Shown here in pieces: positions 1 to 44,126 of a stretch of DNA of 64,000 bases (positions are counted from its first letter, which is position 1; the number at the start of each line of letters is the position of its first letter). A program made the translations under genes and the position numbers. Source of the stretch: Mytilinidion resinicola. Its lineage: Eukaryota > Ascomycota > Dothideomycetes > Mytilinidiales > Mytilinidiaceae. The stretch lies in contig NW_022985470.1 in NCBI RefSeq assembly GCF_010093595.1, forward strand, positions 72,736 through 136,735, written 5' to 3'. Below the pieces are notes generated by a model, which made no database searches, was not told where the DNA came from, and saw only the letters and a list, made by a program, of their open reading frames with translations.

Positions 1-2
1 AG

Positions 3-215
3 TACTGGGTTATCACAAGAGATCGCTATCCTATTCTAGGCCAGCTAGCCCTTGATATCTACTCCATCCCAGCCTCCTCAGCTGATTGTGAGAGAATTTT
101 CAGCGAACTTGGCGATCTCCTGGGCGTACGACGCCTTAATATGAAGCCTGAGTTACTTAGTGCTCTGCAATCTATACGCTCCTGGCGTCGAATTGGCATC
201 AAACCTCCTAAGTAG
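3..215 (+). pseudogene. hAT transposase, C-terminal dimerisation region (5' part outside window)
   Basis: An open frame runs from the window edge to TAG at 213-215, 70 codons. It reads like the hAT C-terminal dimerisation domain: W near the start, YP, a run LALDIYSIPASSADCERIFS, then R-RLN and a terminal RSWRRIGI. The A-S-x-x-x-E-R-x-F-S core is the family hallmark. In hAT elements this region holds transposase subunits together. The upstream catalytic part lies outside the window, so I cannot tell whether the element is active. Confidence 0.85.
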
Positions 216-356
216 TAATCAACTTATCAATCAATCTATCAATCAAACCAATCAATTCAACTTGGGGGTCAAAAAGTATCAATCTCATCAACTCAACTTG
301 AGCATCTCAGAAATTAATCAAATCAAATCAAATCAATCACAGCCTGTTCAACGAAG

Positions 357-410
357 CAATCAATCAACTTGGAGACGTCAAAGTTGATTGATTGATTGAT
401 CCCCACTCTG
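357..410 (+). mobile_element. Probable 3' end of the hAT element with subterminal hairpin
   Basis: A perfect 14-bp inverted repeat (357-370 and 381-394, loop 371-380) made of CAAT-type repeats lies 142 bp after the transposase stop. It is followed by GATCCCCACTCTG ending at 410. Read on the other strand the end starts CAGAGTGGGG, and a CAG start is usual for hAT termini. The stretch 216-356 is full of AATCAATC/AATCAAATC repeats, like hAT subterminal repeats. The left end is outside the window, so the 8-bp target duplication cannot be tested. Confidence 0.5.
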
Positions 411-644
411 ATCTAGGAATCAAAGTGCAATGAGCGTCTGTTTTAGGCCAAAGCAATTGAAGAACAGTGTTACGATATTGTCTATACCGCGGACACATTC
501 AACTATCTAATGATTTTGCCGCGCTTCCTGTGCTACTCAAGTAACCTCATGGCTCCCAAGATTTACACTTAACCAATTGCCTACGAGAACCTCCATCGAA
601 TATCCGAGTTCAGATACGTGTTTCTGCTAAGGGTCTTAGCCGTC

Positions 645-1033
645 TTAAACCTCCCATAATGTCCATTGGTATCCCCAGTATTCCTCCTCTGGTGTCTCGA
701 GAAGCCAACGAACTATCGAATAAGGCATATTCGTATCTGATCGCTGAGATTGGGAATGAAGCTGGCGGTGGAAGCTAGCAGTATGGGGCGCTTCGAGACC
801 AGGCTTCTTTTCTGATGCAACTTGATGAACTGGAAGTTTTTCCTGGATGAAAGAACTCGGTCAGTCAAAGCAAGGCTGTTGGGAAGGTTTGGCTTCAGTA
901 CCTTGGGTGCATCGGACTTCAACGAAGAATCAACAGTTGCGACCAAAGAAGCACCAGTGCTCAGGTCCTCAGCATTCCGGGTTTTTGGTCTAGCATCTCC
1001 AGCGTTCGGCTGGTCTTGTCGGTGACTAGCCAT
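645..1033 (-). CDS. EYW1: small two-exon protein of the EYW family, 109 aa
   Basis: Exon 1 is 902-1033 (44 codons from ATG, starting MASHRQDQP) and exon 2 is 645-842 (65 codons and stop). The 59-bp intron 843-901 has GTACTG donor, CTGAC branch site and CATCCAG acceptor, phase 0. The product is hydrophilic with no signal peptide or membrane segment. The C-terminus holds the family motif MPYSIVRWLLETPEEEYW (residues about 83-100) and then a tryptophan-rich tail. The same layout recurs at EYW2, EYW4 and EYW6. The fit of splice sites, reading frame and motif supports a real gene. Function is unknown; I recognise no homologue. Confidence 0.7.
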
Positions 1034-3273
1034 GGGGACTTTGTACGAGTAGGAAGTCTTCCTATCCGAAGGATAATAGGTCTTGAAAGGATTTGGGGGA
1101 AATGAGCTAAACCTCTAAAGAGCACAGAAAGATGAAACGAAGTCAAAGAAGCCGCGGGCAATTCCCATTCGTATGCCACGGCAAAGCAGAGCTCAACGAA
1201 AGGGGAATGATATGCTCGTGTCTGTATCAACGCTTCATTTTGCCCAGCAAAGGATTTCCACGCCCTACTCGAGAAGGCAAACTCACCGGATACATGGTAT
1301 GGCCGCATTTGCTTGAATCAGTTCGATACACCCAGACCGTATGGAATCGGGCCTTGTCGGCCGTATTCTCCGACAGCACCTGCAGTTCACCCAGACTATG
1401 ATCTTTCGTTGGATCACCCAGGATTACGGCCGGGGTGGCTATCTTTCCCTACCACTAAACGTTGATGGAGGAGCGAGTCGAAGGAGTCCGCTGATCGCAA
1501 TGTGCCGACCGAGCGACTTGAGCGGTGTACCAACTGGTAGGCAGGAATCAGTATGGCAGAAAACGTATTCGTAGATCCGCAAAATGACACATCCGATGAA
1601 CACGCAGCGGCTCCTTGAAAGCCGCTGTAGGGGTACAGGGAACCTCCTTGCACCCTGCCTGGTATATTGGCGCTGACTCGTGCTTCCTGGCAAGTTCTCA
1701 GCCTTGACGGGCCGGAATGCTGGGGGTTGGTGACCCACCCTACGGGCCGCCCCCCTGGCGGGTTCTTACTTGGAGTCTGAGCATGACACTTTACCAAGGG
1801 TCTGCAGGGCTAACAAGCCTTTCTCGTTACAAAGGCTGCGATCGCAGTACGATTCGAGTCGCGTATTTTGCAAACGACCTTTCAACGGTCAGTGAAAGGG
1901 CACATCAATAACGCTGAATGATTCAAAAAATAGCCTCCGATACTCCGTAAAACTCCGTTCGACTGTTCCAAGTTGCTCTTAGACTTGGCATACCTGCAAG
2001 GATAAGGCCGAGGAATAACGCGACACGTAGGAGGCGCACATCCGTCGGCGACAGAGCCGACGACTTCGAACGCAAAAGGCAAATTCAGCGACTCGCAGCG
2101 GCGCCACCAATCAACTGACTACGCCGCAATATACAGAGCGCACGGATACAACAATTGCAGCGGACTGGATCTCCCGTTCCTGCCCGCATTACCGTTTGTG
2201 GTCGCGGCTCTAGTCCCAGCCTTCTAACTGCGATGAAGCCGTCTCCGACATCTGTTATTTCCGAAGAGCACTCTCCCTCATGAGCGAAATCTTGGCACGG
2301 GATAATGGGTCCGAGTCTATGCCTCGACAGTTTCGTCCGCGATCGTTAGAATTGTCATACCGAGCCTGAAAGTAACGACCGTCGGGCGCAAGACCACGAG
2401 AGGAACACGTGGAAGTATGTACGATCTGGGTGGACGATTCAATTGTCCCTCAAACGAGAGAAAGTCCAATACGAATGGGAAATCACGTGCTCCCGACTAA
2501 CCGACGATGTCGAAAGTCTTCAGAAGTCTGAAAACACTGACATGGCTCCACGTACTCTACTTAAGAAGTATGTCATCTTTCAACTCTTCCCTCAATGACC
2601 TCAAGTTTCCACCTGAATTGAAACTGATTCATTCTTTAGTGAGAATGGGCTACAGTCTCTCAAGCCCGATAAATCTCTTCAAGATCGAGTCAGACGCGTG
2701 CCCGCCCACCCTCGAATTCATTTATCCTTGCGCTAAAGCTGTGTTCATGCAGTTCCGTTAGCGATGATGTGGTTTACGTGTCGCGAACGAAAGTTGAAAG
2801 ACGGCACGACGTGCGAGAAGAGTTGCACTACCGACGCTATCAATGTGACGGCGCCAGCGGCTCGGCCCCTGGGACGAAGACGACCCACTCTTGGCCGTCC
2901 GTGCGAGTGGGATGCGTGGGGGCGGGGGCACCACCCGAACCTCAGCCTTACCCCTCAGCTTCCCCGCAAGCACTTAACACGGTCTCTCACACGGTCTTAC
3001 AGGTCAGTGTCGGTGGCTTGAGCTGTAGGCCATCTTCTCCGAATGGCTACTTCTTGGCTCTCGTTCTTTTCGTCTCCTCCGCAGTTACACGTTTATTCAG
3101 AGACACTCTAGATTATGTCCACCATCTAAGCACATTCAATCGAAACGAAATGCGAAAAAGGGCTTTCATGTATAGCAGATCTCTCTCTGGCTATCGAAAT
3201 CAAAACTTTTACTAACATTCTCCCTCTCCGCCCAATAATCGCCATCCCAGCGACTGACAGGAAGTAGGTACCA
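1034..3273. other. Gene-poor stretch between EYW1 and EYW2
   Basis: No open frame here has a start, codon pattern or domain I can support. The longest frames overlap on both strands and look like chance. No further EYW motif was found. Confidence 0.5.
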
Positions 3274-3623
3274 TTAGGTACCCCTGCCAGAGCCTTCAGG
3301 ATTCCAATATTCCTCCTCTGGCGCCTGGTTAAGCCATCGAATCATCGAATACGGTAGACCGTTTCTCGGAACTTGCAATTCGTCCATGGAATGGCCCCCG
3401 AAGTTTCCAGCGGTGGGATCAGAGCAGTCATTAATTGCCTGCGCCTGCTAAAGAACATGACTGACGTTAAAGGCCCAAACATTTCAGAGAACAATGTAAA
3501 TCGTACCTTGATGCCATTGGCTTTCGAATGCGGGTCGATTTTTGCATCGGATGCCAGCGGAGGCTTCAACTCTTTAGTCTCAGCATTGCTTCCATTGGAC
3601 TTGCACGCATGGTCATTCGCCAT
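3274..3623 (-). CDS. EYW2: small two-exon protein of the EYW family, 96 aa
   Basis: Exon 1 is 3507-3623 (39 codons from ATG, MANDHACKSN..., ending NGIK) and exon 2 is 3274-3447 (57 codons and stop). The 59-bp intron 3448-3506 has GTACGA donor, TTAAC branch-like site and TTTAG acceptor, phase 0. Two more AG acceptors 3 and 9 bp downstream keep the frame. Exon 2 carries PYSMIRWLNQAPEEEYWN and a short Gly/Arg-rich tail. The exon 1 end NGIK is shared with EYW3, suggesting these two are the closest pair. No signal peptide or recognised domain. Confidence 0.68.
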
Positions 3624-5002
3624 GGTACAGTTGCGTGTGTTTTGTGGGTATGTCCGGAGCTGAGGAAATGAAGGCTGGAAAGATCGGTATCAAGAAACAG
3701 ATTGAAGATCGAAATGCCGGCCACTGCATGTCAAGAAAGGAAGCGGGTTCCAAGTCGAGGAGAGAGGGCCCTTTTATGCCACATCAAAGTGATCCTTACA
3801 ACGACCGCGGAAGACTGCGCCGGACTTTCCTCGTATTTCCCACTCCTGCATGGTGGAAATGCAAGTGATAATCGAACTGCAAGTTGGCTTGCAAGGCAAC
3901 AGAAGGCAGATGGACCGATTCGGAAAGCTGCGTGCTCCATGTGCTGCATTTCAGCGCCGTCATCACCATGCGACGCATATGCCATGCGGTGGGCTTGCCC
4001 ATGCACCTGTAAGTAGGTCCAACGATACTGCTAATTGGTTCGGCTAGCTGTCGAGCAGTCCGAGCGCTCCCTTGGCTGGGACACTAATTTCCCTCATTTT
4101 CCCCCCACGCTCCCTTCACGCTGCCCGCAAGGTTGAGGACGAAGCCCCCCACTTTCCCAGGGCACTTCATCAAATCCAACGCTTTCCGGACGTTTGCTCC
4201 TACTTGAGTAGCAAACTCTCCCTCCCACTGGGAGGTTCACGCCGATCTCGATGTACCACCGTGCATACGCGCAAGGCTGAAGTAGGTAGCCAAGCACGGT
4301 CGCTAATCTACCAAGCCGGGCCGCCTTTCCTTTCCAGCTCTGACGTATGCCCGATCTGTTGGGGAGGCCTGGCTCTACCATGAGTGAAATGAAAGAAAAG
4401 ACACCTTGCAACGTTCCTCAAACCTAGCTACTGTTAGGTCATACCTCGTCTCATCCAGCGAAGATCAATGAGAGGAATGCAGTGAAAGTATGGCTCCAAC
4501 AGACGATGTAAATGGTCTGGATTCAACCCATGTCTTACGTCAGGAAGCGTCCTCGGCGACTCCTGTAAACTTTCGAATCGGCGGGCAAGGCACGGCTCTC
4601 AAAACATGCTGTTAGATAGCCTGAAGGTTTTGTGCTGGATATCATCTTCAGCAGCCAGCTTTTTTCCAGATTGCACTCAGTGCGGTTCAATTCTCTTCCC
4701 ATCGCAGGATCCCTCCGTTATTCCACAATGCCTAGAGTACTGCCTACATTATCAACGGTCGGAGCGATGTCTGAAATTCTCAGATGACGCAGAAATAGAA
4801 TGATGATTGTGGATGTCGGCATTGTGGAAGCTCAATTGACATGACTCGTGTTTATTTTCTCGACTTCTAAGCTGTTTCTTTCAACGAATGGAATAGCAAA
4901 GATAAAACAAACCCAAGCAGTCTCTAGCCACCACGTACGACGGAGGTCTTTCCGAGGTCTCGAAAACTTCCGAGCACGGACAAGAAAGCTTGACTAGTCA
5001 TC
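3624..5002. other. Gene-poor stretch between EYW2 and EYW3
   Basis: No supportable gene. Short overlapping frames on both strands only. Confidence 0.5.
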
Positions 5003-5387
5003 TCACGTACTACCACGTCCTTCAATGTGCCAGTATTCCTCTTTTACTTCTTGGAGAAGCCTGCGAGCCATTGACTAGGGCTTACCGGGCGTCTCCAAGG
5101 ACTGCGCTCGAAGCCGCAGGTGACGCTGGAAGGCAGCGGTCTCCGTATCATCTTTGGCGGGTGGGGCTTGATTAGGTTTGCGCGGACTCTAGAAGAATGA
5201 GTTCCGCTAGGAGTAGCAAATGTGTTGGGGTGAGTCCAATTTGTTCACTTTACCTTGATTCCGTTAAGTTTCCACGAAGTATCAATATCCGCATTTGCAG
5301 ATTTCCCAGCCTCATCAACTTTGGTGCCAGTATCTCTTCCCCCCTGGCGATCTCCCGGGTGTATATTCCGCAACACTCTGCGGGCAT
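5003..5387 (-). pseudogene. EYW3: disrupted EYW family member
   Basis: Exon 1 sequence (5254-5387) ends NGIK as in EYW2; the intron 5189-5253 has GTAAAG donor and TTCTAG acceptor, phase 0. Exon 2 (5003-5188) is open except for TAG at 5075-5077. That stop sits exactly where siblings have Tyr of the YSM motif; the frame then continues SMARRLLQEVKEEYWH to TGA at 5003-5005. The only nearby ATG (5385-5387) is one frame off the conserved part of exon 1, so an indel is also likely. A TATATA box about 70 bp upstream (near 5460) fits this start. A Tyr-to-stop change plus a frameshift would make it a pseudogene. Confidence 0.6.
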
Positions 5388-6204
5388 GGTGGTCTCTTCG
5401 TAGAGCGTTCAGAAAGAAGAGAATGCGTAGAGCCCAGAGAGCTTTGAACGTCAGGGATATATAAGCAATTTGGCCCCGGGACAGCATGACAAGCTCTTAT
5501 GTTGCAAGAACAGAGTGACCTAAGAATCAGTGAGAAGGATACCCGACTCCTGCCACCCCTCCTACAGCTACATGACGCTATTCTTACTAGGCAAAAGAAG
5601 GCAACATTGCCAACTGGCCGATTGCAACGTGGGGGTAATCAACCACTTGCTACTTCTCAAAGCTGCTAGAGTTACTACGGTGGCGCCGACACTACGTGAG
5701 CCACTCAGACGAACAACCTTGCAGATGTGGCTGCGTCTACCGTGCTTCCAATTGGTTCACAGGCCGTTGCGACGTTTACCCCACTGCTCGCGCCCTGTCA
5801 CCCGCGCAAGGCTGAAAGCAGAAGGCCTTCCCCACCGGAAAAAGTTATTTGTTGCTTCAAACTCGTGCAAAAGAGCATCACGTTGTCGTGACGAAGCTGC
5901 AACATACCCCAGAGTCACGGGATTAGTTATGTGACGTCAGACGCGCTATCAAGTGCAAGTCGCGATCTTCTAGCTCCTTAAAATGACACATCATGACTGG
6001 ACATGTGTAGTAAGCCAAGATCAACCATCACTCGTAGGTACTGCTTCTATTCTCGTCTATTTCATGCTCTACGTCCAGCAGGATATCCATATTGAAAGCC
6101 AGCATCACTGACCAATATACTCTAAGGAAAGTAATATCTCCGCAGCCTAGCGCTATGGGCATATCTATCTTTGCATTGCTTATATGTTGCATAGACATTG
6201 AGCC
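5388..6204. other. Gene-poor stretch between EYW3 and EYW4
   Basis: A plus-strand open frame at 5530-5934 has no recognisable domain and resembles chance. Nothing else supported. Confidence 0.45.
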
Positions 6205-6515
6205 TTACAGGACGTTAGGCCGACTCTCAGTGTGCCAGTATTCCTGCTTCGCGGTCTCGTTCAGCCAACGTTCAATAGGACTGCTGATGTTTCCTTCCGG
6301 ATCGTGTTTGTCGAATTCGAGGGGTTCGGGGCCGTGCTTGTCGTTCTAGGATAAGAGAAATGTCAGTAACGGCAAAGAGTTGGGCGGAAATGGCATAGTA
6401 CCGGTTCACGGCGATTTTTCGCAAGACTGGCTGCGGATTTCGAAGACGTCTCATTTTCCTGAATTTCGAGCCCAGAACTCTCTTTCTCGGGCTGTGGGCT
6501 CTGATCTGGAGCCAT
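6205..6515 (-). CDS. EYW4: small two-exon protein of the EYW family, 84 aa
   Basis: This is the cleanest family member. Exon 1 (6402-6515) gives 38 codons from an ATG in good context (MAPDQSPQPEKES...). Exon 2 (6205-6345) gives 46 codons and TAA. The 56-bp intron 6346-6401 has GTACTA donor, TTACTGACA branch site and TCCTAG acceptor, phase 0. The product is very polar, rich in E, K, S and N, with no signal peptide, and is likely disordered in the first half. The C-terminal motif reads SSPIERWLNETAKQEYWH. A TATAAGAG box lies about 190 bp upstream on the minus strand. Function unknown. Confidence 0.75.
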
Positions 6516-8003
6516 GGGCGTCTTGCGACAGAGAGGGTGTTTCCCTGGTAGAGGCAAAGGTACCTAGAGAAGCAGTGCTGAGCTGGCTGAAGTAATGAAG
6601 AGACAAGACCTAAAGATGATTTTTGGAAGGGAGAATCAGACTTGAAAGACTGGATGCGTATTGAGGGATGGTGGGGTTAGTCTGAGGATGGTGCTCTTAT
6701 ACCACAGCGAGGGAGATTCCGGGGCGGCGAGGGCAAGCTCAAGTCTCCACTGGCATCCTTGCACTCTCAGGTTGAGAGAGGGATACAATGATCTTATCTT
6801 ACGCTGTCTTGCAGGGTGCAAGAAGGCAATTGACTGGATGCGAGACATGTTGCTTCTTTTTTGCTACACTTCGTTGGCCAGTCGGCCCGCGCGACTCGCT
6901 CGAGGGAGTTGAGTGGGCTGCGCGAACTCGCTCGAGGAAGTTGAGTGGCCCGTTCATCTGCGGCCCGTTCACACGACTCGCTCGAGGGCGTCGAGTGGCC
7001 CGTTCATCCGTTCATCTGCCTTGCGGCCCGTTCACGGACCGTTCGCTCGCTCTGTCGGACTTACTGCGTCCGCTAGTCAAGATACGGTACTGAGGTCAGC
7101 CGCTCTAGGTTAGCTGCTGATACAGAATTTAGCGATTTACCGTCACTGTGATTGCGGCCGCTAAAGTTTCACATCAGCGACTAGATCTCTTCACGGGAGT
7201 CCTGGACACCTCACGGTTCGTAATTGAATTACTTTGGGCATACTAGCTGGTATAGATTAGCAATCGACCGTCACTAGAGCGATGTCCATCAGCCGTTCAA
7301 TCTGCGGGCTAAGCTATGCGCGATGTCCTTTTTGAAGAACAGCCCTGAAAAGCCACAGCAGCACTGGAACGGATTGAGTACTGCTTCACACGTACTCTCG
7401 GGCCGTACTCACCCCACCCTGCCGCTAATCCCCCAAGTCTCAGCCTTGTGAGGTCATCGCTCACCACATCTACTCTACGGCTTGTTTAACACTCGACTTA
7501 GGCTGTAAAATGGCTGAAATATCGCGAACGCCCTGGTTCGCATCTGCTCGACGGCGCCACCTTCGGCGCAATTAGTATCACAGTGACCGAAAACAAACTT
7601 TTGCACCAACTAAATAGCATATTGTCACCTCTTAGGCGATTCATACACATGGCCGAGCAGTCGAAGGCCGACACGGCATTCCGCGCAACGTAACTCCATC
7701 GATGTGTTCATCGTTGCTTAGTGTGTACATCGGGTTTATTGAATTTGCAGTGTCGATGGTCTATATGCGTCAAATATCTTGAGCTCCTTGGTAGCTCCTT
7801 ATCTTTCTTCCTAGTAATCTCAATCACGGAGATATTACGATTCATTTCAGAAGGCTTGATTTCAATACAAGTGTTGAATCGTTGATTGTCAGGCGCCGGA
7901 TTGGAGTATTCCTGTTGAGGTCATCTAGACCACGTCTCTTCTCTGAGATTAAACGAAGATCTAATCGCTATTTTATAGCTAGGCTTACTTAAACTCTTAG
8001 GAA
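6516..8003. other. Gene-poor stretch between EYW4 and EYW5
   Basis: Holds the direct repeats at 6894-7045. Bases 7050-8000 contain no supportable gene. Confidence 0.5.
6894..7045. repeat. Three diverged direct repeats
   Basis: ACTCGCTCGAGG followed by a GTTGAGTGG-like block occurs at 6894, 6925 and 6975. The second and third copies extend through GCCCGTTCATC and CGGCCCGTTCA. Unit length varies (about 31, 50 and 60 bp), so this is an irregular tandem expansion. Confidence 0.75.
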
Positions 8004-8407
8004 TCAAGTCCCACCACAAGTATGCCAGTATTCCTCTTCCAGACTCCCGTAGAACCAGCGTGCCATAGAGTAGGAGATTTCTGCTTTGGTGTTGGACTCG
8101 GCACATTCATGTCGTTTGAATATCGTCTTGGTATCCTAGATGAGACAAGTGCCAGAACTAGAAATACACTATACTATATAGCAGCCGCCGGTCCTAAGAC
8201 CCGCAGCGCTCGGAGGTTCCTGCTTTCCCCGATACAGCTCGCGACGAGCTTTCGAAGCTCCAGTGGTGCTTGATACTTCTTCGTCGTAAAGGATGAGCTT
8301 GAGAGGTCAATCAAATTAGATTTGGGTGAATCTTGGTTAGATCTCACTGAAGAATGATCACTGTCAGTGACAATTTCGGCGTTCTTCACGGTCCTCGTCG
8401 CCTCCAT
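8004..8407 (-). CDS. EYW5: probable EYW family member, exon structure uncertain
   Basis: The last exon (8004-8135) is clear: after CATCTAG it reads open to TGA and carries ISYSMARWFYGSLEEEYWH. A first exon 8348-8407 (ATG, MEATRTVKNAE...) ends at a GTGAGA donor. A middle exon 8175-8297 after CTCAAG keeps phase 0 throughout and would give 104 aa. The second intron would then be only 39 bp, and the frame stays open well upstream of the ATG, so start and middle exon are tentative. The tail HTCGGT resembles EYW6 (NTCSRG). Confidence 0.5.
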
Positions 8408-10894
8408 GGATTCGCCATCTATGGTATTTGACGTTCCATTTGTAGCCACGTTAACCTTAACACTGCTTCCAGATACGGTGACTTGTTTGGGGTGGGACTT
8501 GTTGCCGCAACCTCACGCACCGCGCGGACTTCACGGGTCACATCGATCCTCTAGATGTTCCCGTGATGTCAGGCAAGGGATACCGTAGCAATACGGCTCG
8601 CATCGACGACAAGGACGACGGTCTTCTAGATGGGATGAGGAAGTTAACACACAGAGAAATCTCAATAAAAAGCGTTTCCTTGGTGCTACGAAACTGCCTG
8701 TATATTTGTTTGGTTGTTGTCAGCATATGTTCCGGCACTTGCGTCGTAAAGTTCTGACTGGGTAAGTGTATTCCGAAATCTTCCTATATAACCCCAGAAA
8801 CCATTAGCGGGGTAATTCTTGAAACGTTGGCCTCCCTAGACCCTTTCTGTCGCTACCCGAAGCGGCGAACTCTCGTTTCCGACGTCGAGCAAGGAACCCT
8901 TAACCTCCAAGTGTTTCAAAGCCAGTCGAGTCGACCATCGCCCACTTCTGGCTGGGTAAAGCAATTCTGTTGCCTCGCTCTCCCTTGTAGCCAATCAACG
9001 GCTAGTAGTAGGAAACTAGTCTAGCTCTAGCGGAAGAATGTCTCGCGTATCACAGGACGGCTTTGAATGCTCGATGTACTACTCCCTAATCTACCAGAGC
9101 AAGATTTCTCTCTCGAACCGCAATGCGCCGCCTTTCATAGAAATTCAAAGCGGCTACACAGCTGATTATATTCACATTGACGGTGTCGTGGTCTAAATGG
9201 GAACAGAACCGTGATTGAAGCCTTCGGCGTAGGCAAAATATCCTCGTGATATATAAGGGCTTTCCTTTCTATGTTAAGCCAGATAAATCATAGTATGACT
9301 TGAAGAACTGGTTGGGTACCTTCAGAGTCACGTGCGGTATGAGTCAGCGGATCCCGTGATCAGGCTGAACGTCAGCCTTTCCCGAATTTTCTTCCTCATC
9401 CTTCATCCATCCGCCATCATCACAGATCGACAAAGTCAGCCAATTCCCATCACAGCGGTCATCTCTAAAGAGAGCTGCTTAATATTTTCAGCCTGCAAGC
9501 TCTACGCCTTAGAAGTCTTCGCTGGTTCTTTTGCCCACTACCCCACTAGAGGCTTTAGTGACGCCTTGAGCTTAGGCTCCACTCACTCCGGCAATTTTAA
9601 TGCCCGTCCAGCTCTTCCGTGCTTCTCATAATCCTGCTTAGGAAGGATAGGTAACATGATCTCGTAAGGTTCCTTAAGGAGTTAGCAGAGTTGAATAACT
9701 GTCTAAAATAATACTCACAGGCAATCTTAGCACGCTAAGAACCAACTCCCCAGGATCATACTTCTCTAGAAGACGAATGAAATCAACCGGGTTGGTTAAA
9801 GTCCAAACGCGTGCGCGGTGCTGTGTAGGGGGCTGGAAGTTGGAGCTAGCCCAGAAGGTTTGCCGAAGGGTGTAAACACCCTTCGGCAATTTTTTTTAGA
9901 TTAGTCTCATGTAGGCGTATTACCCGTGCGCCTATTCTATTCATTGTCTTAACAGAGATTGGCTAGCCCCCCTAGTGGCGGCATCGAGCTGCGCATTCCG
10001 AACTCGAAAGACCGTCAGCTACTTCAACCCCAGAGACGCTTGCATACGACATCGTAGGATTTCTGTTCGCGCAGCATGCTAGGCAGGTTTTTAGAGCTGA
10101 ATAATTTCGAGAAAATTTCTTGCAAGAAAAAACATTTGTAGCAAATATATGAAGGTTTGAGTTTACAGCTCTGTCATATTCTTGGAAGTCTACTTCTCGT
10201 ATTTCGACACCGACATTCATATTTTCAACGTTTCTTAAGGAGATGCTGCTTTGCTATCTTGAAGTCCTGCCGCGGAGACAACGGTGGTGCTCACGCTTGC
10301 AGAGTCGGTTAGAAACTACTACTTATAACATTGAGCGAAGGCACTTACCACCTCGGTTTCCGGTGATAGCAGGTCGTTACTGCGGCGGACAGAGAAAGCT
10401 TATTTAAGTTTTTCAAACTGGCCACGTAAGTGTTGTTGCTTGATGAGTCGGTGTATCCCATGTTACATCGACCTAGGAGGAGTCGTTCTCGCGACTTCAC
10501 GACAGCACGCGTCCTACATTATTAAAGGATTCAACCAAAAGTCCAAATTGACAGTGTTTTATCCAATAAGATTGCTTAAATGCTTCTTCTGGGCTGCCCA
10601 TTTTCCAGTTTATAGATTGCGACAAAATCCGCGAGTCACGGCGATTGGGAACAGCAATGAGGGAGAGCATGCATTGTCAGCGAAGAAGAGCAGAATCATA
10701 ACTAAGAAAGGAACCAAAAGCCAAATATTCCTGTCCATGTTTCGAGGCGGCAATTGAACATGCTTATGTCCAGCTCCGACTAGAAAGACGATGCAGTGAC
10801 GAGTCACAGCCCCAGGGCCCCTTGAAAGCATATCAAGGGTATTTAGGTATAGTGTCCAACCACTGAAAGAGACCGCCTTCTGTGACTATCGATG
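8408..10894. other. Gene-poor stretch between EYW5 and EYW6
   Basis: Contains the hairpin at 9860-9889. Short frames at 9332-9631 (+), 9674-9889 (-), 9972-10220 (-) and 10440-10757 (+) match nothing I recognise; some lack ATG starts. No EYW motif found. Confidence 0.45.
9860..9889. repeat. Perfect 14-bp inverted repeat followed by a T-run
   Basis: TTGCCGAAGGGTGT (9860-9873) pairs perfectly with 9876-9889 around a 2-base loop, followed by eight Ts. It looks like an intrinsic terminator, but that mechanism does not end Pol II transcripts. A transposon terminus or RNA hairpin is more likely. Confidence 0.8.
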
Positions 10895-11214
10895 TCACCC
10901 ACGGCTGCATGTGTTCCAATGTTCCTCCTTAGAAGTCTCGTCAAGCCAACGTGCCATAGAGTACGAGACACCATCTTCAGGATTGCGGTTGGTTTCCTCA
11001 TTGCAGGTGCTCGGGAGTCTTTGGTCTGTGGTGGTTTGACCCTGAGTGGCATTTTGTCAGTCTAAGTTGTATCAAAGAGTCGGTGATGTCAATGAGGGTA
11101 TATTACCTGGCTCTGGTCACCGATGCGATCGTTTGAGTCTTCGTAGACACCAGAAGCTGCACTAGAATCTTGCTCTAGAGCCACCTTGGTCGGAGCGATG
11201 AGCTTCCCGGGCAT
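10895..11214 (-). CDS. EYW6: small two-exon protein of the EYW family, 84 aa
   Basis: Exon 1 (11107-11214) is 36 codons from ATG (MPGKLIAPTK...). Exon 2 (10895-11041) is 48 codons and TGA. The 65-bp intron 11042-11106 has GTAATA donor, ACTGAC branch site and ACTCAG acceptor, phase 0. Length is identical to EYW4. The C-terminal motif reads VSYSMARWLDETSKEEHWN, with His for the usual Tyr. A TATAAG box lies about 200 bp upstream on the minus strand (near 11415), as at EYW4. Polar protein with no signal peptide; function unknown. Confidence 0.72.
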
Positions 11215-13684
11215 GATGTTGTCCTTTCCCTTGAACCCTGCTGCGGAAGATGTGGGTGGAGTGAGAGTATCTCGGAAGGGATGTTAAGGGCGAGATGTTT
11301 TCAACACTTGCAACAGGTTATGAACGCAGAGCAAGGCTGACAACCTATCGAAAGGTAAAGAGAGGGAGTGGATAGACAAGAAACTGCATCCTTTATTTGA
11401 GCGGGTTACTGAAGTACTTATAAGCTGGCCAGCGTGAGTGTCAGCAAGCAGCACAGTGAGTGATCGAAAATAAGGCAACGGCCATAGACGCATTGCCGAA
11501 GAAAACGAGGAGCAAAGTCTAGCTGACGGGGCCAGTGAATACGCATTCTGTGCTGGTGGTTGAGTCCAAAAACTCCAGCACCCTGCCGATTAACATCCCA
11601 TGCCGCGGCGCTGCATCACACCAATCACATCACCCCGGGGGCGACGGCGACGGCGTCAGGGGGCGGACGGCGGCAGCGCGTGTGCCCGTGCCTTTCCCAG
11701 AGCGTCGACAGCACGCCGAGCGCCTTGCGCAGCCTTCTGCACCAGCTGCATGTCCCAGCGCGCCCTGACGCTGCGCGAAAGGGCCTCGATCCCCGTGCGC
11801 TCCTACTGCCCTAGCTCGAGGGGATCATGCTCCCCACGTCTCTCCCACACAGACTATACTGTATCGCTTGCTCATCTATATGTATGCTATCTCTCCTACA
11901 TTCGACCACGCAGCAGTATGCAGTCGGTCAGTCTGTGAGCTTCCGCTGAGTAGCTTGCCGAAAGAATCGTGTGGCGCGCACTCGATGTCCCACGTCACCC
12001 GTCTTAGGGCGCTGTTGCGGGCCCAAGACCGCTCCCCACAGCTGACCTCCTCGGTGTTGTCGTTGTAAAAAGTCGCTCTCCATACGCTATCCATCACGCC
12101 AGGTGCCCCTAATCTTTAATACACTTTTAGGCGAGGTTGTCAGGAAAGGGGACTTGATCGTTCCTGATCAGCTTCCTCCAATGACACTTGAAGGATGACG
12201 CTGAAGAGTATGTTTACTACAATACTGGACGTTCGTGAGAGAGGAAAATATGGCCAAATCTTGGGGTCCGCATCGTTGGCGTTAATGAACGAGAGCCTAA
12301 CCCTCGACAGACGCTATGATAGACCAAACAGAACACGTGTTGGAGCAGATTGACGGCAACGGCGGGGTTTGAGTCTGCCTATGTCCAATCCGAGCAAGGG
12401 GGGCTGTGATCGAAGGCGATCGCGAGAGGCGCCGTAACGCCCATGCTGCGTGACACTGCTCCGTGTGCACCACACCCGTCGTGCTATCGGCAAGCATGGG
12501 TGTGGCGTATTGCGCATCATGACGGGCGCCAGCTCAGCCGGCCCTGGGGGCAGAGGGTAGACGAGCTATGTAAGATCCGTGACTCGTATTGCGGTAGAAC
12601 AGCTGGAGCCCTGCGCGCTGGGACGGCCTCCCGACTGAATCGCACCCCCACGAGGGCCTAGGCCACCGCCAGGAATTATCCATCCACGCACCCGAGCTAG
12701 CTCTGTTCATCTCGCGCCAGCGTAGGGGGCCTTCTGGCGGTGTTCGGCGATCTTGGAGAACCTCATGCAGGTGGTTCCTGACGCCCACTCCGCGCGTGCC
12801 AAGACTGTAACATACCCGTCGGGAATGTCACGGTCTTGGCGAGTGTGCATTGCGCAAGTGTAGCTGTATAGAAAAGGTAAATAGAAAAGTGATGAGCGGG
12901 GAATGTGTCGATCATGTGACTACTTTTGAGTACCAAGTACGGAAACATGAACACGTCTTTCTTGAAACACTGTCGATAAGGGCTCACCGATATCGAATAG
13001 AGCTTTTCGAAAACAACAGCAACTGAACACAAGTAAACTGTCACGTGCGCAATGCCCTGGGCCTACTTGAGTTCCCGGACCTCGGAGGTGAATGGATGGG
13101 TCCAGCCACAATGCGCCACGCCATCGGCGAAACGTTCTTCCCTCAGCAGAGGCGCCCTGTCGTACATCCCATCACCACTTCAATCATCGTCCCTCCACGA
13201 CGCTTCATGCCGCGCACGACTCCGATGTCCGAGCAGAGTTGCAATAACACGTCTCTTGACCATCCAGATTCTTGCGCTGACCGCCCGATGGTACCCGGTG
13301 CGCTGCTCAGAACGCGACATGCTAGCCGAAATAGGTCACTCCACTTGAAAACTCTTATTTCCCGTCCAATTCTAGGCTTGGCTCCGCGCCCAAAACTCTA
13401 AAAGGGCTTCATGTAGTATTCCCTACACGTTACATGTGGGCCCACGGCTAAAACTCTGAAATGGTAACCTTTCAAGTTTTTCTATTGTTTTTCTTCGCGT
13501 GGGTGTGGTGTTCTGGATTGATCGTCATGGCCTGCACGTTCATATATAGCCAAGATGCCATGGCCAAGCTCTCACGTCATTAAGCTTTCAAGTCTTATTT
13601 CACCGCCAAGTCAATATATTACAAACGTAGAGCCTCGCGAACGTGCTCTATATCTAATTCTAATTCTAAAACTATACTACCCCA
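11215..13684. other. Gene-poor stretch between the EYW region and the permease
   Basis: Bases 11,560-11,940 and 12,300-12,800 are GC-rich and open in several frames at once, which argues against coding. The imperfect palindrome at 12798-12840 lies here. Bases 13,400-13,684 should hold the permease promoter; TATATAG occurs near 13,543. Confidence 0.45.
12798..12840. repeat. Imperfect 20-bp palindrome
   Basis: GCCAAGACTGTAACATACCC (12798-12817) and 12821-12840 are inverted repeats with 3 mismatches and a 3-base loop. Possibly the remains of a small inverted-repeat element. Confidence 0.6.
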
Positions 13685-15390
13685 ATGGAGTTCAACACCC
13701 TTCCCGTGCCCTCTCCTCCAACCAAATCAACGGCAGATAATGCAGAGAAATCATCTATCCACTCATCGAGTGACGTAGAGAAACAAATCCCGGGGACGAC
13801 TAACACACTTCATCGTACCCTCAAAGGCCGGCATCTCCAATTGATCGCCGTTGGTACGCAGTCCCTCCTCATGTGCTATCAGTTACTTGAAGACTAACAT
13901 CACTAGGTGGCACCGTCGGCACTGGTATCTTTATTGCCTCAGGCACATCCCTCTCCACCGCTGGACCTGCTGGAGCTCTCATAGGATATGCTTTCGTCGG
14001 CACCATCGTCTACGTCGTCACCTTCTCACTGGCTGAACTCTCCACCGCATATCCGCTGGCCGGCTCCTTCACACAACACGCGTCACGATTCGTCGATCCA
14101 TCTCTCGGCTTTGCTCTTGGATGGATATACTGGTTCAGCTGGGCGATCACCTACGCGCTCGAGCTTACGGCTGCGGGACTAGTAATGCAATACTGGACGC
14201 AGAAAGTCAGCATCGGTGTCTGGATCGCAATCTTCTGGGTACCTATCACAGCCCTCAACTTCCTCCCCGTCAACGTGTACGCCGAATGCGAGGTCTGGTT
14301 CGCCAGCATCAAAGTCATCGCCCTAGCCGGATTCGCCATCTTCGCCATATGCATCAACGCGGGCGCAGGAGATGACGGATACATCGGTTTCCGGTACTGG
14401 CGTACCCCAGGCGCATTCGCACCTTACCCTTCCCTCGCCGACACCTCCGCCTCCTCGGCCGGCGCCAAAGCCGTGGGATGCCTCGCCGTACTCATCCAAG
14501 CCGGTTTCGCCTACCAAGGCACCGAACTCGTGGGTGTCGGAGCTGGCGAGAGCGAGAACCCAGGCAAGACGATGCCCAGCGCCATCCGCCGCACTTTCTG
14601 GACAATCTTATCGTGCTTCATCTCCACCATCTTCTTCATCGGCATCCTCGTGCCGTACAATAACGAGGCCCTCCTAACCGGCACCACCAACGCCGCGGCC
14701 TCGCCTCTCGTCATCGCCGCGAAGCTCGCCGGCGTCAAAGCACTCCCCGACATCATTAACGCGATTCTACTCACCGTCGTCCTCTCCGCCGCCCTCTCAA
14801 ACGTCTACTCCGGCTCCCGCATCCTCATCGCGCTCGCCGACTCCTCTTCCGCACCGGCGTGCCTCAGCAAAACGAATCGCCGGGGCGTCCCCATCTACGC
14901 CGTCGCATTCACCTCCGCCTTCGGCCTCCTCGGCTTCATGAACCTCAGCAACAACGGCGGCGAAGTCTTCAACTGGTTCCTGAATATCATCGCCGTCGCC
15001 GGCTTCATCGCCTGGGCATGCATCTGCGGCTCACACATTGCTTTCATGCGGGCCCTGAAAGTGCAGAATAGATCGCGGGCCGATCTTCCATACAGAGCTC
15101 CGTGCCAGCCGTACGCAGCGTGGTACGGGCTGGTGTGGTGTGTGATTATTATCTTTGGCCAAGGGTTCACGGCGTTTTTGCCGTGGAGCACTAAGGGATT
15201 CTTTGTGGCGTATGTTAGTTTGATACTTTTCGCAGTTGCGTACGGAGGACATAAGATCGTGACGCGGACTGGGTTCGTCAAAGCACACGATGTGGATCTA
15301 GATGATGGGAGGTGGATTGGTCTAGGGACGGATAGCGAGGAGGAAGGCGAGAAGGCCGGATGGAGGAAGATGCTGGCTAGGCTTCATTGA
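13685..15390 (+). CDS. Amino-acid permease, YAT/AGP type, 550 aa
   Basis: Plasma-membrane proton-coupled amino-acid transporter of the fungal YAT group (APC superfamily). Exon 1 is 13685-13853 and exon 2 is 13907-15390. The 53-bp intron has GTACGC donor, GACTAAC branch site and CACTAG acceptor and splits a Gly codon. After a polar cytosolic N-terminus comes HRTLKGRHLQLIAVGGTVGTGIF, the conserved entry into TM1 with the GTGIF substrate-binding turn. About twelve hydrophobic segments follow, with ELSTAYPLAGSF in TM3 and a YQGTELVGVGAGES block in the TM6 region. The C-terminus is acidic. Substrate is not clear: basic or general amino acids are both possible. Confidence 0.93.
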
Positions 15391-38070: not shown

Positions 38071-40101
38071 ATGGCTGCCTCGTCTGCGCTCTCGCTGGAG
38101 GGGCTCCAGGGTGCGGCGCACGCCAATGCTCTTCCCACCGCGCTTGCTGCAGCCTCCTTTGGCGTCGTCTTCCACCAATTCATTCGAAATATCGAGTTCG
38201 ACGCCCTGATGTATCACTTCATGGCCCTGTCCATAGCGGCCTTCGTAGGCATCGCCTACACATACTTCTCCCTCGGCGAGCTTAGTCCCATCGGAGCACT
38301 TGGAAAAGCATCCTTAGCCGCCGCCTCTTTCAACGCAGGGCTCATTGTCTCCATTGGCATCTACCGCCTCTTCTTCCACCGACTTCGCAGGTTCCCAGGT
38401 CCGTTTTGGGCGAAGCTGTCACGATTCTACAACGCGCGCTTGGCAGCCAAGAACGTGCAGTACTTCAAGGAAGTGGAGAAGATGCACGAAAAGTACGGGG
38501 ACTTCGTGAGGACTGGTGAGTGATCTCCATGTACCATTCCGAAACGTGTTCCGAGACCGAAATGTTCTCCGAAATATGTTCCGAGATGTGCCCCGGAACA
38601 CATTGGTTAACAGTCGCGATCATCAGGACCCCGAGAACTCCTCATTGCACGCAAGTCCGCGGTGCCAATCATCTACGGTCCAAATTCGGAATGTCGCAAG
38701 TCGACCTGGTACGGCCAGACGGGCAACGATCCCAAGAAATGTTCGATCCACATGACCAGAGACTTCAACGACCATAGGCTCAGGCGCCGGGCGTGGGATA
38801 AGGGCTTTAGTATCAAAGGTATGCATGCGTGCACCGGTTGTAGAAGATCCCTGTAAATCTGGCTAACAGCCTGACAGCCCTTTCCACGTATGAGCCAAGA
38901 ATCAAAGCAAAGGCGGACCTGTTCATGTCCCAGCTTTCACAGCGTTCCGGACAGCCAATGGATATGTCGGCATGGTCAATGTTTTTTAGCTTCGACGTCA
39001 TGGGAGAGGTTGGCTTCGGAAAAGACTTCAACAACCTGACGAGTGGCGTTGAGCACCCCGCAATCGCGGCCGTTCATGAACACATGACCATGTTAGGTGT
39101 GCTTAGCAATGTTCCGTGGCTGCTGAATTTGCTCGGCTCAATTCCTGGCGCTGCGGCGGGATACTCTGGTTTCTTCAATTGGTGTGGTAGCCAAATTAAG
39201 GATAAGCAGAAGGTAAGTTCCTGAAGCGGCGTAGTGAAAGCTTGGTCACTAACTGAATGCACTAGTCCTGGGATCCTGAAAAGTATCCCCAAGATATTGT
39301 GTCATGGCTCCTGAAGGCTTTCAATGAGAAAGACGTGTCGTCTTCGCCCTCGGAAGAGGCACTGCATGACGACTCCCGGGTAGTCATTATCGCTGGCAGG
39401 TAAGTTCCCATCTCACGATAAAACTCATATTTTGGACCTAACAGGACGTTAGCGAAACAACTGCTACTTCGCTCGCCACTATCCTTTGGTATTTCGCGAA
39501 ATATCCCGCCACGTTCAAAAAGCTCCAAGGATTAGTCGACAAGGCCATGCCCGGCGGCGTCGCCGAATGGTCCTACGACAAAGTTAAGTCCGTCACCTTC
39601 ATCGACGACATCATCAACGAGAGTCTCCGACTCAAGCCAGCTCTCCTGACCGGTGGTTATCGCGTCACGCCCGCGAAAGGCATCAAGATCGACGAAGTGT
39701 ACATCCCCGGCGACACCAATGTGTTCGTGCCCATGCAAGTGATCCAAACGCACCCGCGCTACTACAAGCAGGGCAAAGAGTTCATTCCCGAGCGCTTCGG
39801 AGAGAGGCGAGAGGAAATGGGAACAGACGAGGCGCCCTTCTTGCCATTTTCTCTAGGTTCGTTTACCATCATGAACTTAAGACTCGCAGCACTAACAGTA
39901 TACATAGGCGCATACAGCTGTCCCGGCAAAAATCTGGCGTTGTTGAGCCTGAGGATTACGGTTTCGCACATCGCGCTACTGTACGACGTGGGTTTTGCTC
40001 CAGGGGAGACGGGAAAAGCGTTCGACGAAGACGTCTTGGATACGTTCACGACGACGCTAGCGCCTCTGCAGCTTGTTTTCACACCGAGAGAGCGAAAGTA
40101 G
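38071..40101 (+). CDS. P450-1: cytochrome P450 monooxygenase, 567 aa
   Basis: Six exons: 38071-38515, 38627-38818, 38878-39212, 39266-39399, 39453-39856 and 39908-40101. Several hydrophobic N-terminal segments anchor it in the ER, followed by the proline hinge FPGPFWAKLSRFYN. The I-helix reads IIAGSETTATS, the ExxR element ESLRLKPALL, the PERF block FIPERFGE and the haem loop FSLGAYSCPGK with its cysteine near residue 508. ATG 38071 sits in GCCATGG; an in-frame ATG 75 bp upstream is possible. Closely related to P450-2 in this window. The substrate is not known; this type often serves secondary metabolism. Confidence 0.92.
38516..38626 (+). repeat. Short repeats inside P450-1 intron 1
   Basis: The intron contains four to five copies of a 12-16 bp unit like TTCCGAGACCGAAATG and TTCCGAGATGTG, so it is unusually repetitive. 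Its borders (GTGAGT, CATCAG) are normal. Confidence 0.6.
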
Positions 40102-42488
40102 ATATTCGACTGAGATCGCCTCAGAAAATGCTAAATGAGGACGTCCGGAATACCATCGATGTAGTTGGAAAGCGTTTACACTCGCTACTAGGAATATAAT
40201 TGAATCGAACAAGTGATGGGTAGACTATGCCCTCCCACTATAGTGGTACGTGCGACTGGATCCACGAAGTTGATGACAGAACAAATATTTGGTGGTGTCC
40301 GTTTGGGCCGACCTGAGACGTCTCGGCCTTTGGCTGCCAAAGTAGCTGAAGACAATGGAAATAGTGGAGCGGGAAATAGGAAGAATGTTTTCAGAGCTGA
40401 GTGGCCGGAATGATTGGCTGGGGAGAAAGACTTTCGATTAGCATTGGTACAGAAGAGGATAACTCTTACGTACATAGCTACGACCATGGTTTTGCAATGT
40501 GTCAAACGCCTAGTCACACTATTCAAAGTATATCGTAGCAAGTTCTGCAATATCTGCGGGGTAGCTCTTGACGGAAGGGCGCATACTATAGACGCGCACA
40601 GACATGGCAGGCGTTAGAATCGCTTCGAAGACTTGGTACTAATCTAGCTACCCAGCAGGCAGCCTAGTTGAATATGAATATTCAAGAAAATGGCTTGAAT
40701 ATCACGAGCATTCGAGTAGCACAGAGGTGGCGCGTCTTTGGTGGGTTGACCTGGTGGAAAAGAGAAAGGGATATGGGTCCTATTAATAGAAATTGATCAT
40801 GCATAGGGACCCACGGTATAACTTGACAGAACTGTGGAGCGATCAGGGTAGTCAAGTCGTCCCACAAGAATATCTAGTATTGCTCCCAGTAGGACGGAGA
40901 TCAGAGGTGTCGTCGATCAATGGCGGCTGCTACATTGCACAAGCTGCGGTGGCGATAGTGACCCTGGATCTGTGGTGGCCGAGTGGATGAAGCACGAGAG
41001 TGAATAGATGAAGCAGGGACAAAGAAAAGGAGTGAATGACGTCGATCGGAGGCGATTCTCCCGGGCTCCACCGGATCCACCGCAGAGCGGCCGACGATCT
41101 GTACCTCGACTCAACTCTAACTCCATCCCCCATACCCACAGCTCGGCCAAGGCGACGGCTGGTATCCCAACGACGCTGGGTGTCACAGGGCGAACCCTCT
41201 TGATCAGCTCTGCTCGACGAGAAATGCCATCTGTGGCGCGGAGAGGCCCCGAACGAGGCTGAGCCCCCGTTAATCTTATAGGTATTCCTTTCATATACCA
41301 GAGTTCCAAGTCTACAGTCCCTGATAATCGGCGGCGAAGTTTGTCATTTTGCATCGTTTGGTTTTCTTACTCGTCACATCTGTCCTATCAAAATCGGGTT
41401 CCTCGACAATACTTGCTTCTTGCTGGTGCCACATCAGATCTGCACCCCAAGTTTCAACGGTCCCGGCTCCAATGCTCCACAGGGCCTGCCGATCTCGACT
41501 AGACGTCTTGAATAGCTTCAATTGATGTGGTATTGCCACCACAAGGCCACAAGGAAGATGCCTTGAGGCGACTCACACTTGCGTTGGTGTAAGGGAACGA
41601 CCGTTGGAGCGTTGACTGTCCACCTGCATCCTTGCCACAAGGCGACCCCGGCTTGTCGCAGTTGCCACCATCGCACAGCTATTGTACCTGCTTATGATTC
41701 GCGCATGGTGGTTTACCAGTCCTCTAACGTTTCGCGGCCGGGGGAGCACACACACAATTCACGTCGATCAATAAACGGGCCGGAGATGAGTGTTCATGCG
41801 TTCGAGAGAACTACACAGTACAGAAACCCAACTCACGTCATTAATGAACGGGCAACTCTCGATCAGGCCATACTCCTTGCAATAATACTACCATTTCTGT
41901 GCTGACTATGCGCCATTCATTCGCCGCGCTGCTTCGCGCCGAGCGGTCCCTTGCAAGCACAAAAATTTTCTAGCTTTACGACTAAAACGTAGCCTCCGCT
42001 GAGGGTAGCATTGCCTTCTAGAAACCGCGTCCAATCCCTTCCAAGCCACTTCTCCGCGATTGATCAACTAGAGTTATTGACGACGCGACCACGAAGGTGC
42101 CGCAGGGCAACCGGTGCCGCACGTTTCTTGATCTTGCCAACTAGCTACCCACTCACAACACACCTAGGGGAACATGAGAGCTGAGATATCGCGATCGGCA
42201 CGCTGCAGAGCTGGGGATATCTTGGATATCTGCCCAGAACTTACGTGTGCCCATGTTCAACCACTGTGCTCCTGGACGGCATCCATCGATCTTGCTTCTC
42301 TAGCCTCGCCCCGATGACGATGGCAAAAGAAAGCAGTGGTATATGCGCTGACTACTGAATGTCTATAAAAGCTCGACGTACTGAACTGTTGAAGACGCCA
42401 TCCAAACATCAAAGCACGCTTCTCTCTACCATCAACTCTTAATATCCAATCATCTACTCCATTTCACCTCGTTCATCAAACGTCCAAG
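40102..42488. other. Intergenic region upstream of the hydrophobin
   Basis: No frame is supported. The last 130 bp hold the hydrophobin core promoter. Confidence 0.4.
42364..42370 (+). promoter_or_regulatory. TATA box of the hydrophobin gene
   Basis: TATAAAA lies 125 bp before the ATG, leaving room for a normal leader; hydrophobin genes are often strong and regulated. Confidence 0.6.
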
Positions 42489-43961: not shown

Positions 43962-44126
43962 CTAATTCAGATACACCCACAGCCCAGCCAGCGCCGCGGT
44001 GCCAGCAACACTGTACTGCGCAACCTGCACATTCGCCGCAGCGCTCTTGTTGCCGCCACTCTTCTTCTTCGCCTCGACGGACGCGACGGCGGCGAGGACG
44101 GTGAGGACGAGGGGTGTGAGTTTCAT
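43962..44126 (-). CDS. Tiny secreted or membrane protein, 54 aa
   Basis: A single exon from ATG 44126 to TAG 43962-43964. It starts MKLTPLVLTVLAAVASVEA, a clear signal peptide, then a KKKSGGNKSAAAN linker and a second hydrophobic stretch (YSVAGTAALAGLWVYL) at the end. The tail could be a membrane anchor or a GPI signal. A TATATA box lies about 140 bp upstream (near 44,270, minus strand). Fungal genomes hold many such short genes; function unknown. Confidence 0.65.
   Translation of the reverse strand: MKLTPLVLTVLAAVASVEAKKKSGGNKSAAANVQVAQYSVAGTAALAGLWVYLN

What the first reader, a model, noticed from the sequence alone, without database searches (positions are those of the whole stretch)
645..11214. 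Dispersed array of six small two-exon genes with a conserved C-terminal W..E-Y-W motif
Within 10.6 kb, six loci (645, 3274, 5003, 6205, 8004, 10895), all on the minus strand, encode polar proteins of about 84-109 aa. Five share the same plan: a variable first exon of about 36-44 codons, one phase-0 intron of 56-65 bp, and a second exon with SM/I-x-R-W-L-x-E-x-x-x-E-E-Y/H-W near the C-terminus. Splice sites, frame and motif agree at each locus, which is unlikely by chance. I know no described family with this motif and cannot suggest a function. No signal peptides, so an intracellular role is more likely.
Basis: partly seen in the sequence, partly recalled or inferred. Interest (0 to 1): 0.9.

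Follow-up and report, generated by a model that had tools for sequence, protein, structure and literature searches.

The report
Fungal array of small motif-sharing genes
A bark-dwelling fungus carries a row of a dozen small, apparently mostly unannotated genes whose protein products have drifted apart except for one short tail motif, which looks like the part that does the work, probably by docking onto a partner that is still unknown.

Summary
The window lies on a contig of Mytilinidion resinicola (Dothideomycetes); g1 equals its public 109-aa protein BDZ99DRAFT_577044, intron included. The array is twice as long as reported: 12 copies over about 31 kb on one strand, six in the window and six to its left, plus one copy on another contig. 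Among 12 copies (pseudogene g3 left out) motif differences are 0.23 at codon position 2 and 0.58 at position 3, with synonymous sites saturated and flanks near chance identity: an old coding family under purifying selection, not repeat DNA. Two-exon models beat shuffled sequence for g1, g2, g4 and g6, not for g5. Relatives found: a Lophium ortholog of g2 (64% identity) and two metagenomic proteins; no credible Pfam, NCBIfam or PDB match. AlphaFold gives disorder plus one short helix in the motif. Nine of 12 array copies share the upstream 7-mer GCCTTCT in one orientation. Best reading: disordered intracellular proteins, perhaps co-regulated, that present a conserved docking helix to an unknown partner. 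Partner and function are inferred.

The parts
645..1033 (-). g1: two-exon gene, 109 aa (exon 1 1033-902, intron 901-843 GTACTG..CCAG 59 nt phase 0, exon 2 842-645)
   Evidence: identical to public protein P0001 BDZ99DRAFT_577044; 5 of 200 shuffles reach its gene-model score
3274..3623 (-). g2: two-exon gene, 96 aa (exon 1 3623-3507, intron 3506-3448 GTACGA 59 nt, exon 2 3447-3274; two alternative acceptors 3 and 9 nt further on)
   Evidence: 0 of 200 shuffles; 61 of 96 identical to Lophium P0002 across the junction
5003..5400 (-). g3: pseudogene copy (in-frame TAG at 5077-5075 before SMARRL, first W of the motif is R, no open two-exon model; upper boundary approximate)
6205..6515 (-). g4: two-exon gene, 84 aa (exon 1 6515-6402, intron 6401-6346 GTACTA 56 nt, exon 2 6345-6205)
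   Evidence: 0 of 200 shuffles
8004..8407 (-). g5: motif exon 8135-8004 open; upstream exon and intron not supported
   Evidence: 77 of 200 shuffles reach its score
10895..11214 (-). g6: two-exon gene, 84 aa (exon 1 11214-11107, intron 11106-11042 GTAATA 65 nt, exon 2 11041-10895)
   Evidence: 1 of 200 shuffles
675..725 (-). conserved motif of g1, PYSIVRWLLETPEEEYW
3304..3354 (-). conserved motif of g2, PYSMIRWLNQAPEEEYW
5030..5080 (-). decayed motif of g3
6235..6285 (-). conserved motif of g4, SSPIERWLNETAKQEYW
8025..8075 (-). conserved motif of g5, SYSMARWFYGSLEEEYW
10916..10966 (-). conserved motif of g6, SYSMARWLDETSKEEHW
1272..1278 (-). shared upstream 7-mer GCCTTCT (gene sense) of g1
3901..3907 (-). 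shared upstream 7-mer of g2
5596..5602 (-). shared upstream 7-mer of g3
6821..6827 (-). shared upstream 7-mer of g4

Best explanation
A lineage-restricted multigene family in Mytilinidion resinicola: 12 copies in one same-strand array (C34:53.4-84.0 kb, six of them in the window) and one on C27. Each intact gene, as modelled, encodes a soluble, disordered, probably intracellular protein of about 80-110 residues. The only part conserved across the whole family is a C-terminal stretch, YSMxRWLxETPxEEYW, predicted as a short helix followed by an acidic, aromatic tail. Most likely mechanism: this stretch is a docking peptide for a conserved cellular partner, and the diverging rest of the protein is a spacer, a tuning region or a variable second binding face. 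The copies may be co-regulated through a shared upstream element. Shown by computation: coding constraint on the motif, loss of family-wide similarity elsewhere, two-exon structure for several copies, a cross-species ortholog, predicted disorder with one helix. Inferred: docking, a single partner, co-regulation, the role of the variable part.
For: Motif of 12 copies (g3 left out): pairwise differences per codon position 0.337/0.233/0.583; pooled uncorrected pS 0.792, pN 0.286; identity falls to about 0.25-0.30 within some 45 nt on either side. Both W invariant in 13 aligned rows, R and E in at least 90% (g3 not among the rows). Public g1 with the same intron. Lophium ortholog of g2, 61 of 96 identical, colinear across the exon junction. 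Two metagenomic proteins with the same C-terminal motif. Gene-model scores against shuffles: Fisher combined p 6.3e-8 over 12 copies, 200 shuffles each. AlphaFold of g1: one helix, residues 85-92; pLDDT 78 over 81-100 against 55-63 over 1-80. GRAVY -0.93 to -1.48 in six sequences. GCCTTCT within 800 nt upstream, gene strand, in 9 of 12 array copies; no 7-mer reached 9 in 500 random sets from the same contig or 300 shuffled sets.
Against: No partner, expression or localisation data. AlphaFold mean pLDDT is 62.9 and pTM 0.21, from 15 rows, some of which include unspliced upstream frame. Subgroups share more than the motif (h3, h5, h6 and g1; h1 and h2), so the body is not wholly free. For the upstream 7-mer: it was chosen after inspection; 6-mers show no excess and the best 8-mer only equals the largest null value; the 7-mer is about as dense elsewhere on the contig (2-5 per 10 kb outside the array against 4-6 in it); leave-one-out support reaches p<0.05 for 5 of 12 copies (h2, h3, h6, g2, g3) and not for 7; several assumed start codons are uncertain. 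At least one copy is a pseudogene and g5 lacks a credible intron. A single partner is an assumption.
Confidence: 0.45

Rival explanations
1. Partly decaying tandem array: one or a few copies still work and the rest are relics whose motif is the last part to erode.
For: g3 is a pseudogene; g5 has no credible donor; the first exons of h2 and h4 are uncertain, and DNA at h4 (C34:63459-63597) matches a dispersed repeat at 47802-47940.
Against: Synonymous sites are saturated while the motif stays constrained across 12 copies; unconstrained relics of that age should have lost it.
Confidence: 0.2
2. Cytosolic precursors of a ribosomally made peptide (RiPP): the C-terminal motif is the recognition tail for a processing enzyme and part of the variable region is the core peptide.
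For: Conserved tail with a variable body, several copies, no signal-peptide-like stretch; small precursor families with conserved recognition parts are known in fungi (recalled).
Against: By eye, no bounded core flanked by conserved ends and no repeated cores in the models. A UstYa (PF11807) search lists 32 matches in the genome and none on contig C34. Pfam scans of 45 open frames (not all) in the window, left of it and around the C27 copy show no enzyme of that kind beside the array; two P450 fragments lie some 28 kb or more to the right. The bodies are very polar.
Confidence: 0.1
3. Effectors released without a classical signal peptide that act outside the fungus.
For: Small, apparently lineage-restricted, fast-diverging, in a stretch of the contig where few other long open frames were found.
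Against: No signal-peptide-like stretch, 0 or 2 cysteines in six sequences. Mytilinidioid fungi are described as growing on bark (start of an abstract seen) and the species is recalled as a saprobe. The array sits between ordinary genes: DDHD/WWE open frames on the left, an amino acid permease on the right.
Confidence: 0.1
4. Non-coding repeat or structured RNA that happens to keep an open frame.
For: The conserved block is only about 51 nt.
Against: Codon-position pattern and pN/pS, public protein and Lophium ortholog, no Rfam match in window 1-12000.
Confidence: 0.02

Closest known systems
BDZ99DRAFT_577044, uncharacterized protein of Mytilinidion resinicola (P0001)
   Same: It is g1 itself, letter for letter, with the same intron removed
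   Different: Named only as uncharacterized in the record line seen; no family, motif or array given there
BU16DRAFT_561707, hypothetical protein of Lophium mytilinum (P0002)
   Same: Ortholog of g2, 61 of 96 identical, no gap at the exon junction
   Different: Other species; its genomic context could not be read here
Metagenomic proteins P0003 (71 aa) and P0004 (112 aa)
   Same: Same C-terminal motif YSMARWLxxKPxEExW in a small protein
   Different: Little similarity elsewhere; source organism unknown
eIF4E-binding motif YxxxxL-hydrophobic (recalled)
   Same: Short helix with Y and, after four residues, a hydrophobic pair
   Different: W takes the place of L in all 12 motifs, and the Y is not kept: S in g4, H in C27, and h3 reads SATT
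Fungal dikaritin RiPP precursors (UstA-like, recalled)
   Same: Small precursors with variable parts
   Different: No signal-peptide-like stretch, no core repeats seen, no UstYa match on this contig

Membership tests
Any Pfam or NCBIfam family | Profile score over the curated cut-off | tested here: not met
   Pfam: 0 families for 4 models at E<=5; over 15 rows 3 families, each in one row, best E 0.014. NCBIfam over 15 rows: 2 families, each in one row, best E 0.016. Scores against the cut-offs were printed for the first row only, which had no match
Dikaritin-type RiPP precursor | Signal peptide and repeated core peptides between KR sites (recalled) | tested here: not met
   No hydrophobic N-terminal stretch in six sequences; no repeated cores seen by eye in the models
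Dikaritin-type RiPP precursor | UstYa (DUF3328) gene in the cluster | tested here: not met
   32 matches listed genome-wide, none on C34 (the tool calls such lists lower bounds)
eIF4E-binding proteins | YxxxxL-hydrophobic with conserved Y (recalled) | tested here: not met
   Y is S in g4 and H in C27, h3 reads SATT; the position of L is W in 12 of 12
Family of P0001/P0002 (undescribed) | C-terminal RWLxE...W motif after a polar exon 1 and a phase-0 intron | tested here: met
   g1, g2, g4, g6; g5 motif only; g3 decayed
Family of P0001/P0002 (undescribed) | Transcribed and translated | not testable with these tools
   no RNA-seq or proteomics at hand

The most novel reading that the evidence does not exclude
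The array is a genomic repertoire: a dozen co-regulated proteins that all plug into one conserved machine through the same C-terminal docking helix, while each brings its own diverged body, so that the array sets the range of targets or self-markers that the machine recognises, as in a recognition, defence or allorecognition system not yet described in fungi.
Probability: 0.1. Interest if true: 0.8.

Novelty: new variant of a known kind. Interest (0 to 1): 0.45.

Why it matters
Same-strand arrays of small fungal genes are easily missed by annotation: of the 13 copies found here only g1 turned up as a public protein, although the query held full models of g2, g4 and g6 and those held motif pieces of nearly every copy (the search sees only relatives that share 5-residue words). 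The family keeps one short motif while the rest changes almost beyond recognition, which makes the motif a precise handle: a 17-residue peptide whose two tryptophans are kept in every copy but the pseudogene can be used to fish for a partner. If a partner is found, the family becomes a testable case of a gene array that varies one half of a protein and freezes the docking half.

Tried and rejected
Tried without result: Pfam, NCBIfam and PDB sequence searches (the best PDB profile match is myosin heavy chain at E 0.17); Foldseek of the g1 model against PDB, 0 matches; Rfam on window 1-12000, 0 matches. Papers: motif strings and locus-tag prefix, 0 papers; 'Lophium mytilinum' with 'genome', 0; a five-term topic search, 0; Mytilinidion resinicola, 6 papers, Lophium mytilinum, 3, and two topic searches with 10 of 104 and 10 of 25 listed: I saw the listings and the starts of abstracts, opened no paper.

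Self-BLASTN of C34:45-90 kb gave 13 pairs. Two are motif DNA (h1-h2, g1-g2). One pair (66307-66427 and 68590-68709) lies upstream of h5 and of h6 in the same orientation and may be a remnant of a larger duplicated unit. One links h4 (63459-63597) to a repeat at 47802-47940. The rest do not track the copies. Protein comparison of cluster open frames found mainly the family (45 best rows looked at); other pairs were not followed.

Considered and rejected: eIF4E-binding motif (Y not kept); dikaritin RiPP (no UstYa on C34, no signal-peptide-like stretch); repeat DNA (flanks near chance identity). Pattern hits on C1, C5, C10 and C14 and the hits outside C34 and C27 were judged chance from profile scores and reading. 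Weak single matches in other contigs (C12 at E 0.078; C4, C32 and C2 at E 0.79 or more) were not followed. Neighbouring copies are only slightly more alike than in permuted order (10.7 against 9.6 of 21 residues, p 0.041), with no distance gradient (Mantel r 0.02, p 0.55), so recent tandem duplication is only weakly supported.

Caveats: the gene-model score weights were set by hand after first models had been seen; g3 was left out; pairwise comparisons are not independent and are ungapped. The upstream 7-mer was picked after inspection; one search compares the maximum over all 7-mers to allow for that. The database search is limited to shared 5-residue words, so the narrow distribution is what was found, not what exists.

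Full report
Where it is. The window is bases 72736-136735 of contig C34 (444,505 bases) of a 47.1-Mb genome in 44 contigs. The public protein identical to g1 names the organism: uncharacterized protein BDZ99DRAFT_577044 of Mytilinidion resinicola, on a contig of the same length.

The observation. All six loci are present at the stated coordinates on the minus strand. In six-frame translation of C34:1-136735 the regex [RQ]W[LF]x6[EG]xW, written after the copies were known, occurs 11 times, all on the minus strand, and 0 times in 10 shuffled sequences. A profile made from the six window copies finds six further copies to the left of the window, here h1 to h6, with motifs starting at contig positions 53.5, 56.3, 59.2, 63.4, 65.3 and 67.1 kb, and a thirteenth copy on C27 near 535.8 kb (patterns and single proteins). 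h3 and h5 score only E 0.0088 with that profile, close to the best score in shuffled sequence (14.1 against 13.4 bits), but resemble h6 beyond the motif (E 2.8e-7 and 2.9e-10 in a small comparison). Searches of the whole genome with g2, P0004 and pieces of h6 and h1, with a 20-residue piece of g1 and with two patterns gave no further convincing copy; the tool calls such counts lower bounds. The array is therefore 12 copies in about 31 kb, with a run of N at 70556-72735 inside it.

Is it coding. Twelve copies (11 on C34 and the one on C27; the pseudogene g3 left out) were compared over 17 codons. Differences per codon position are 0.337, 0.233 and 0.583; pooled pS is 0.792, that is saturated, and pN 0.286. 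Identity in ungapped 15-nt bins is 0.53-0.67 in the motif and 0.24-0.34 elsewhere. Selection on the protein is the straightforward explanation. Some subgroups share more of exon 2 (h3, h5, h6 and g1; h1 and h2).

Gene structure. ATG-GT-AG models were enumerated, scored and compared with 200 shuffles of each upstream region. Shuffles reaching the real score, of 200 each: g1 5, g2 0, g4 0, g5 77, g6 1, h1 9, h2 1, h3 20, h4 4, h5 23, h6 22, C27 17; Fisher combined p 6.3e-8 (weights set by hand after first inspection). In the window four genes are supported, g5 is not, and g3 has no open model. The g1 intron is the one used in the public record. The Lophium mytilinum protein BU16DRAFT_561707 matches g2 at 61 of 96 residues, in register across the exon junction.

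What the protein looks like. Six sequences (models g1, g2, g4, g6, h1 and the Lophium protein) have GRAVY from -0.93 to -1.48 and no strongly hydrophobic stretch. AlphaFold with 15 rows gives mean pLDDT 62.9, pTM 0.21, no helix except residues 85-92 inside the motif, and the best confidence, 78, over residues 81-100. The model matches nothing in PDB by Foldseek. Over 13 aligned rows (g3 not among them) both tryptophans are invariant and the R and E are kept in at least 90%.

Regulation. The 7-mer GCCTTCT lies upstream on the gene strand in 9 of 12 array copies (h1, h2, h3, h4, h6, g1, g2, g3, g4; not h5 or g5, and in g6 only in the other orientation), 196-529 nt from the assumed ATG in eight and 749 nt in h4, whose start is uncertain. 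The C27 copy has one 393 nt upstream in gene sense, not counted in the tests. With 800-nt regions no 7-mer reached 9 of 12 in 500 random sets from the same contig (largest 8, in 5 sets) or in 300 shuffled sets (largest 7, in 2 sets). A matrix from eight sites has as its best other match in the 136.7 kb the h4 site, 21.3 bits against 15.4 for the next. Against it: 6-mers show no excess and the best 8-mer only equals the largest null value, the 7-mer is not much denser in the array than elsewhere on the contig, and leave-one-out support reaches p<0.05 for 5 of 12 copies only. Co-regulation is plausible, not proved.

Surroundings. Left of the array are an open frame with a HET domain (C34:40.7-43.5 kb) and two adjacent open frames with a DDHD and a WWE domain (48.9-51.8 kb; perhaps one gene). 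To the right are an amino acid permease (window 13891-15390), an arylsulfotransferase-like frame and frames of an FAD-dependent lactone oxidase, and further off cytochrome P450, 3-beta-HSD, Erg28 and MCM4. The first 214 bases of the window are the end of a hAT transposase. Around the C27 copy lie a short-chain dehydrogenase, a DAO-type oxidoreductase and a Peroxidase_2 frame. Nothing there names the function. UstYa, the mark of dikaritin peptides (recalled), has 32 listed matches in the genome and none on C34.

How it most likely works. One short stretch is frozen while the rest of the protein drifts; the frozen stretch holds the only predicted helix in a disordered chain; no export signal is apparent. 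The simplest mechanism is a docking peptide for a conserved partner, with the variable body as spacer or second face. Shown: constraint, structure prediction, gene models, cross-species ortholog. Inferred: docking, partner, co-regulation. I put 0.45 on this reading, 0.2 on a partly decaying array, 0.1 each on peptide precursors and on unconventional effectors.

Novelty. No named family fits, and a search of the paper library for motif strings and the locus-tag prefix returned nothing. Convincing relatives found are four database proteins: g1 itself, the Lophium ortholog and two metagenomic proteins; two further rows (E 2.3 and 8.1) are repeats of SMARWLDG and were judged unrelated. Arrays of lineage-specific genes are a known kind (recalled); this one is an undescribed family, as far as these searches reach, with a sharp contrast between a fixed motif and a drifting body.

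Noticed in passing
window 3-212 (+): C-terminal dimerisation region of a hAT transposase (PF05699, E 6.6e-14), next to a run of N just left of the window.
   Followed up: partly
window 6889-7008: Direct repeats of about 32-33 nt (ACTCGCTCGAGG.AGTTGAGTGGCCCGTTCATC type), three copies between g4 and g5.
   Followed up: no
window 217-410: Low-complexity AATCA-type repeats, with inverted stretches by eye, just after the hAT end.
   Followed up: no
C34:40748-43465 (L026 748-3465, minus): 905-aa open frame with a HET (heterokaryon incompatibility) domain, about 10 kb left of the array.
   Followed up: no
C34:47582-48691 and 63459-63597: Diverged DNA repeats of about 60-200 nt at 67-79% identity; one member overlaps the upstream part of copy h4 and may explain its unclear first exon.
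   Followed up: no
C34:66307-66427 and 68590-68709: 121-nt pair at 74% identity upstream of h5 and h6, same orientation: possible remnant of a larger duplicated unit.
   Followed up: no
window 39442-50035: Two cytochrome P450 fragments and a 3-beta-HSD-like gene within about 11 kb, followed by Erg28 at 51228-51788.
   Followed up: no
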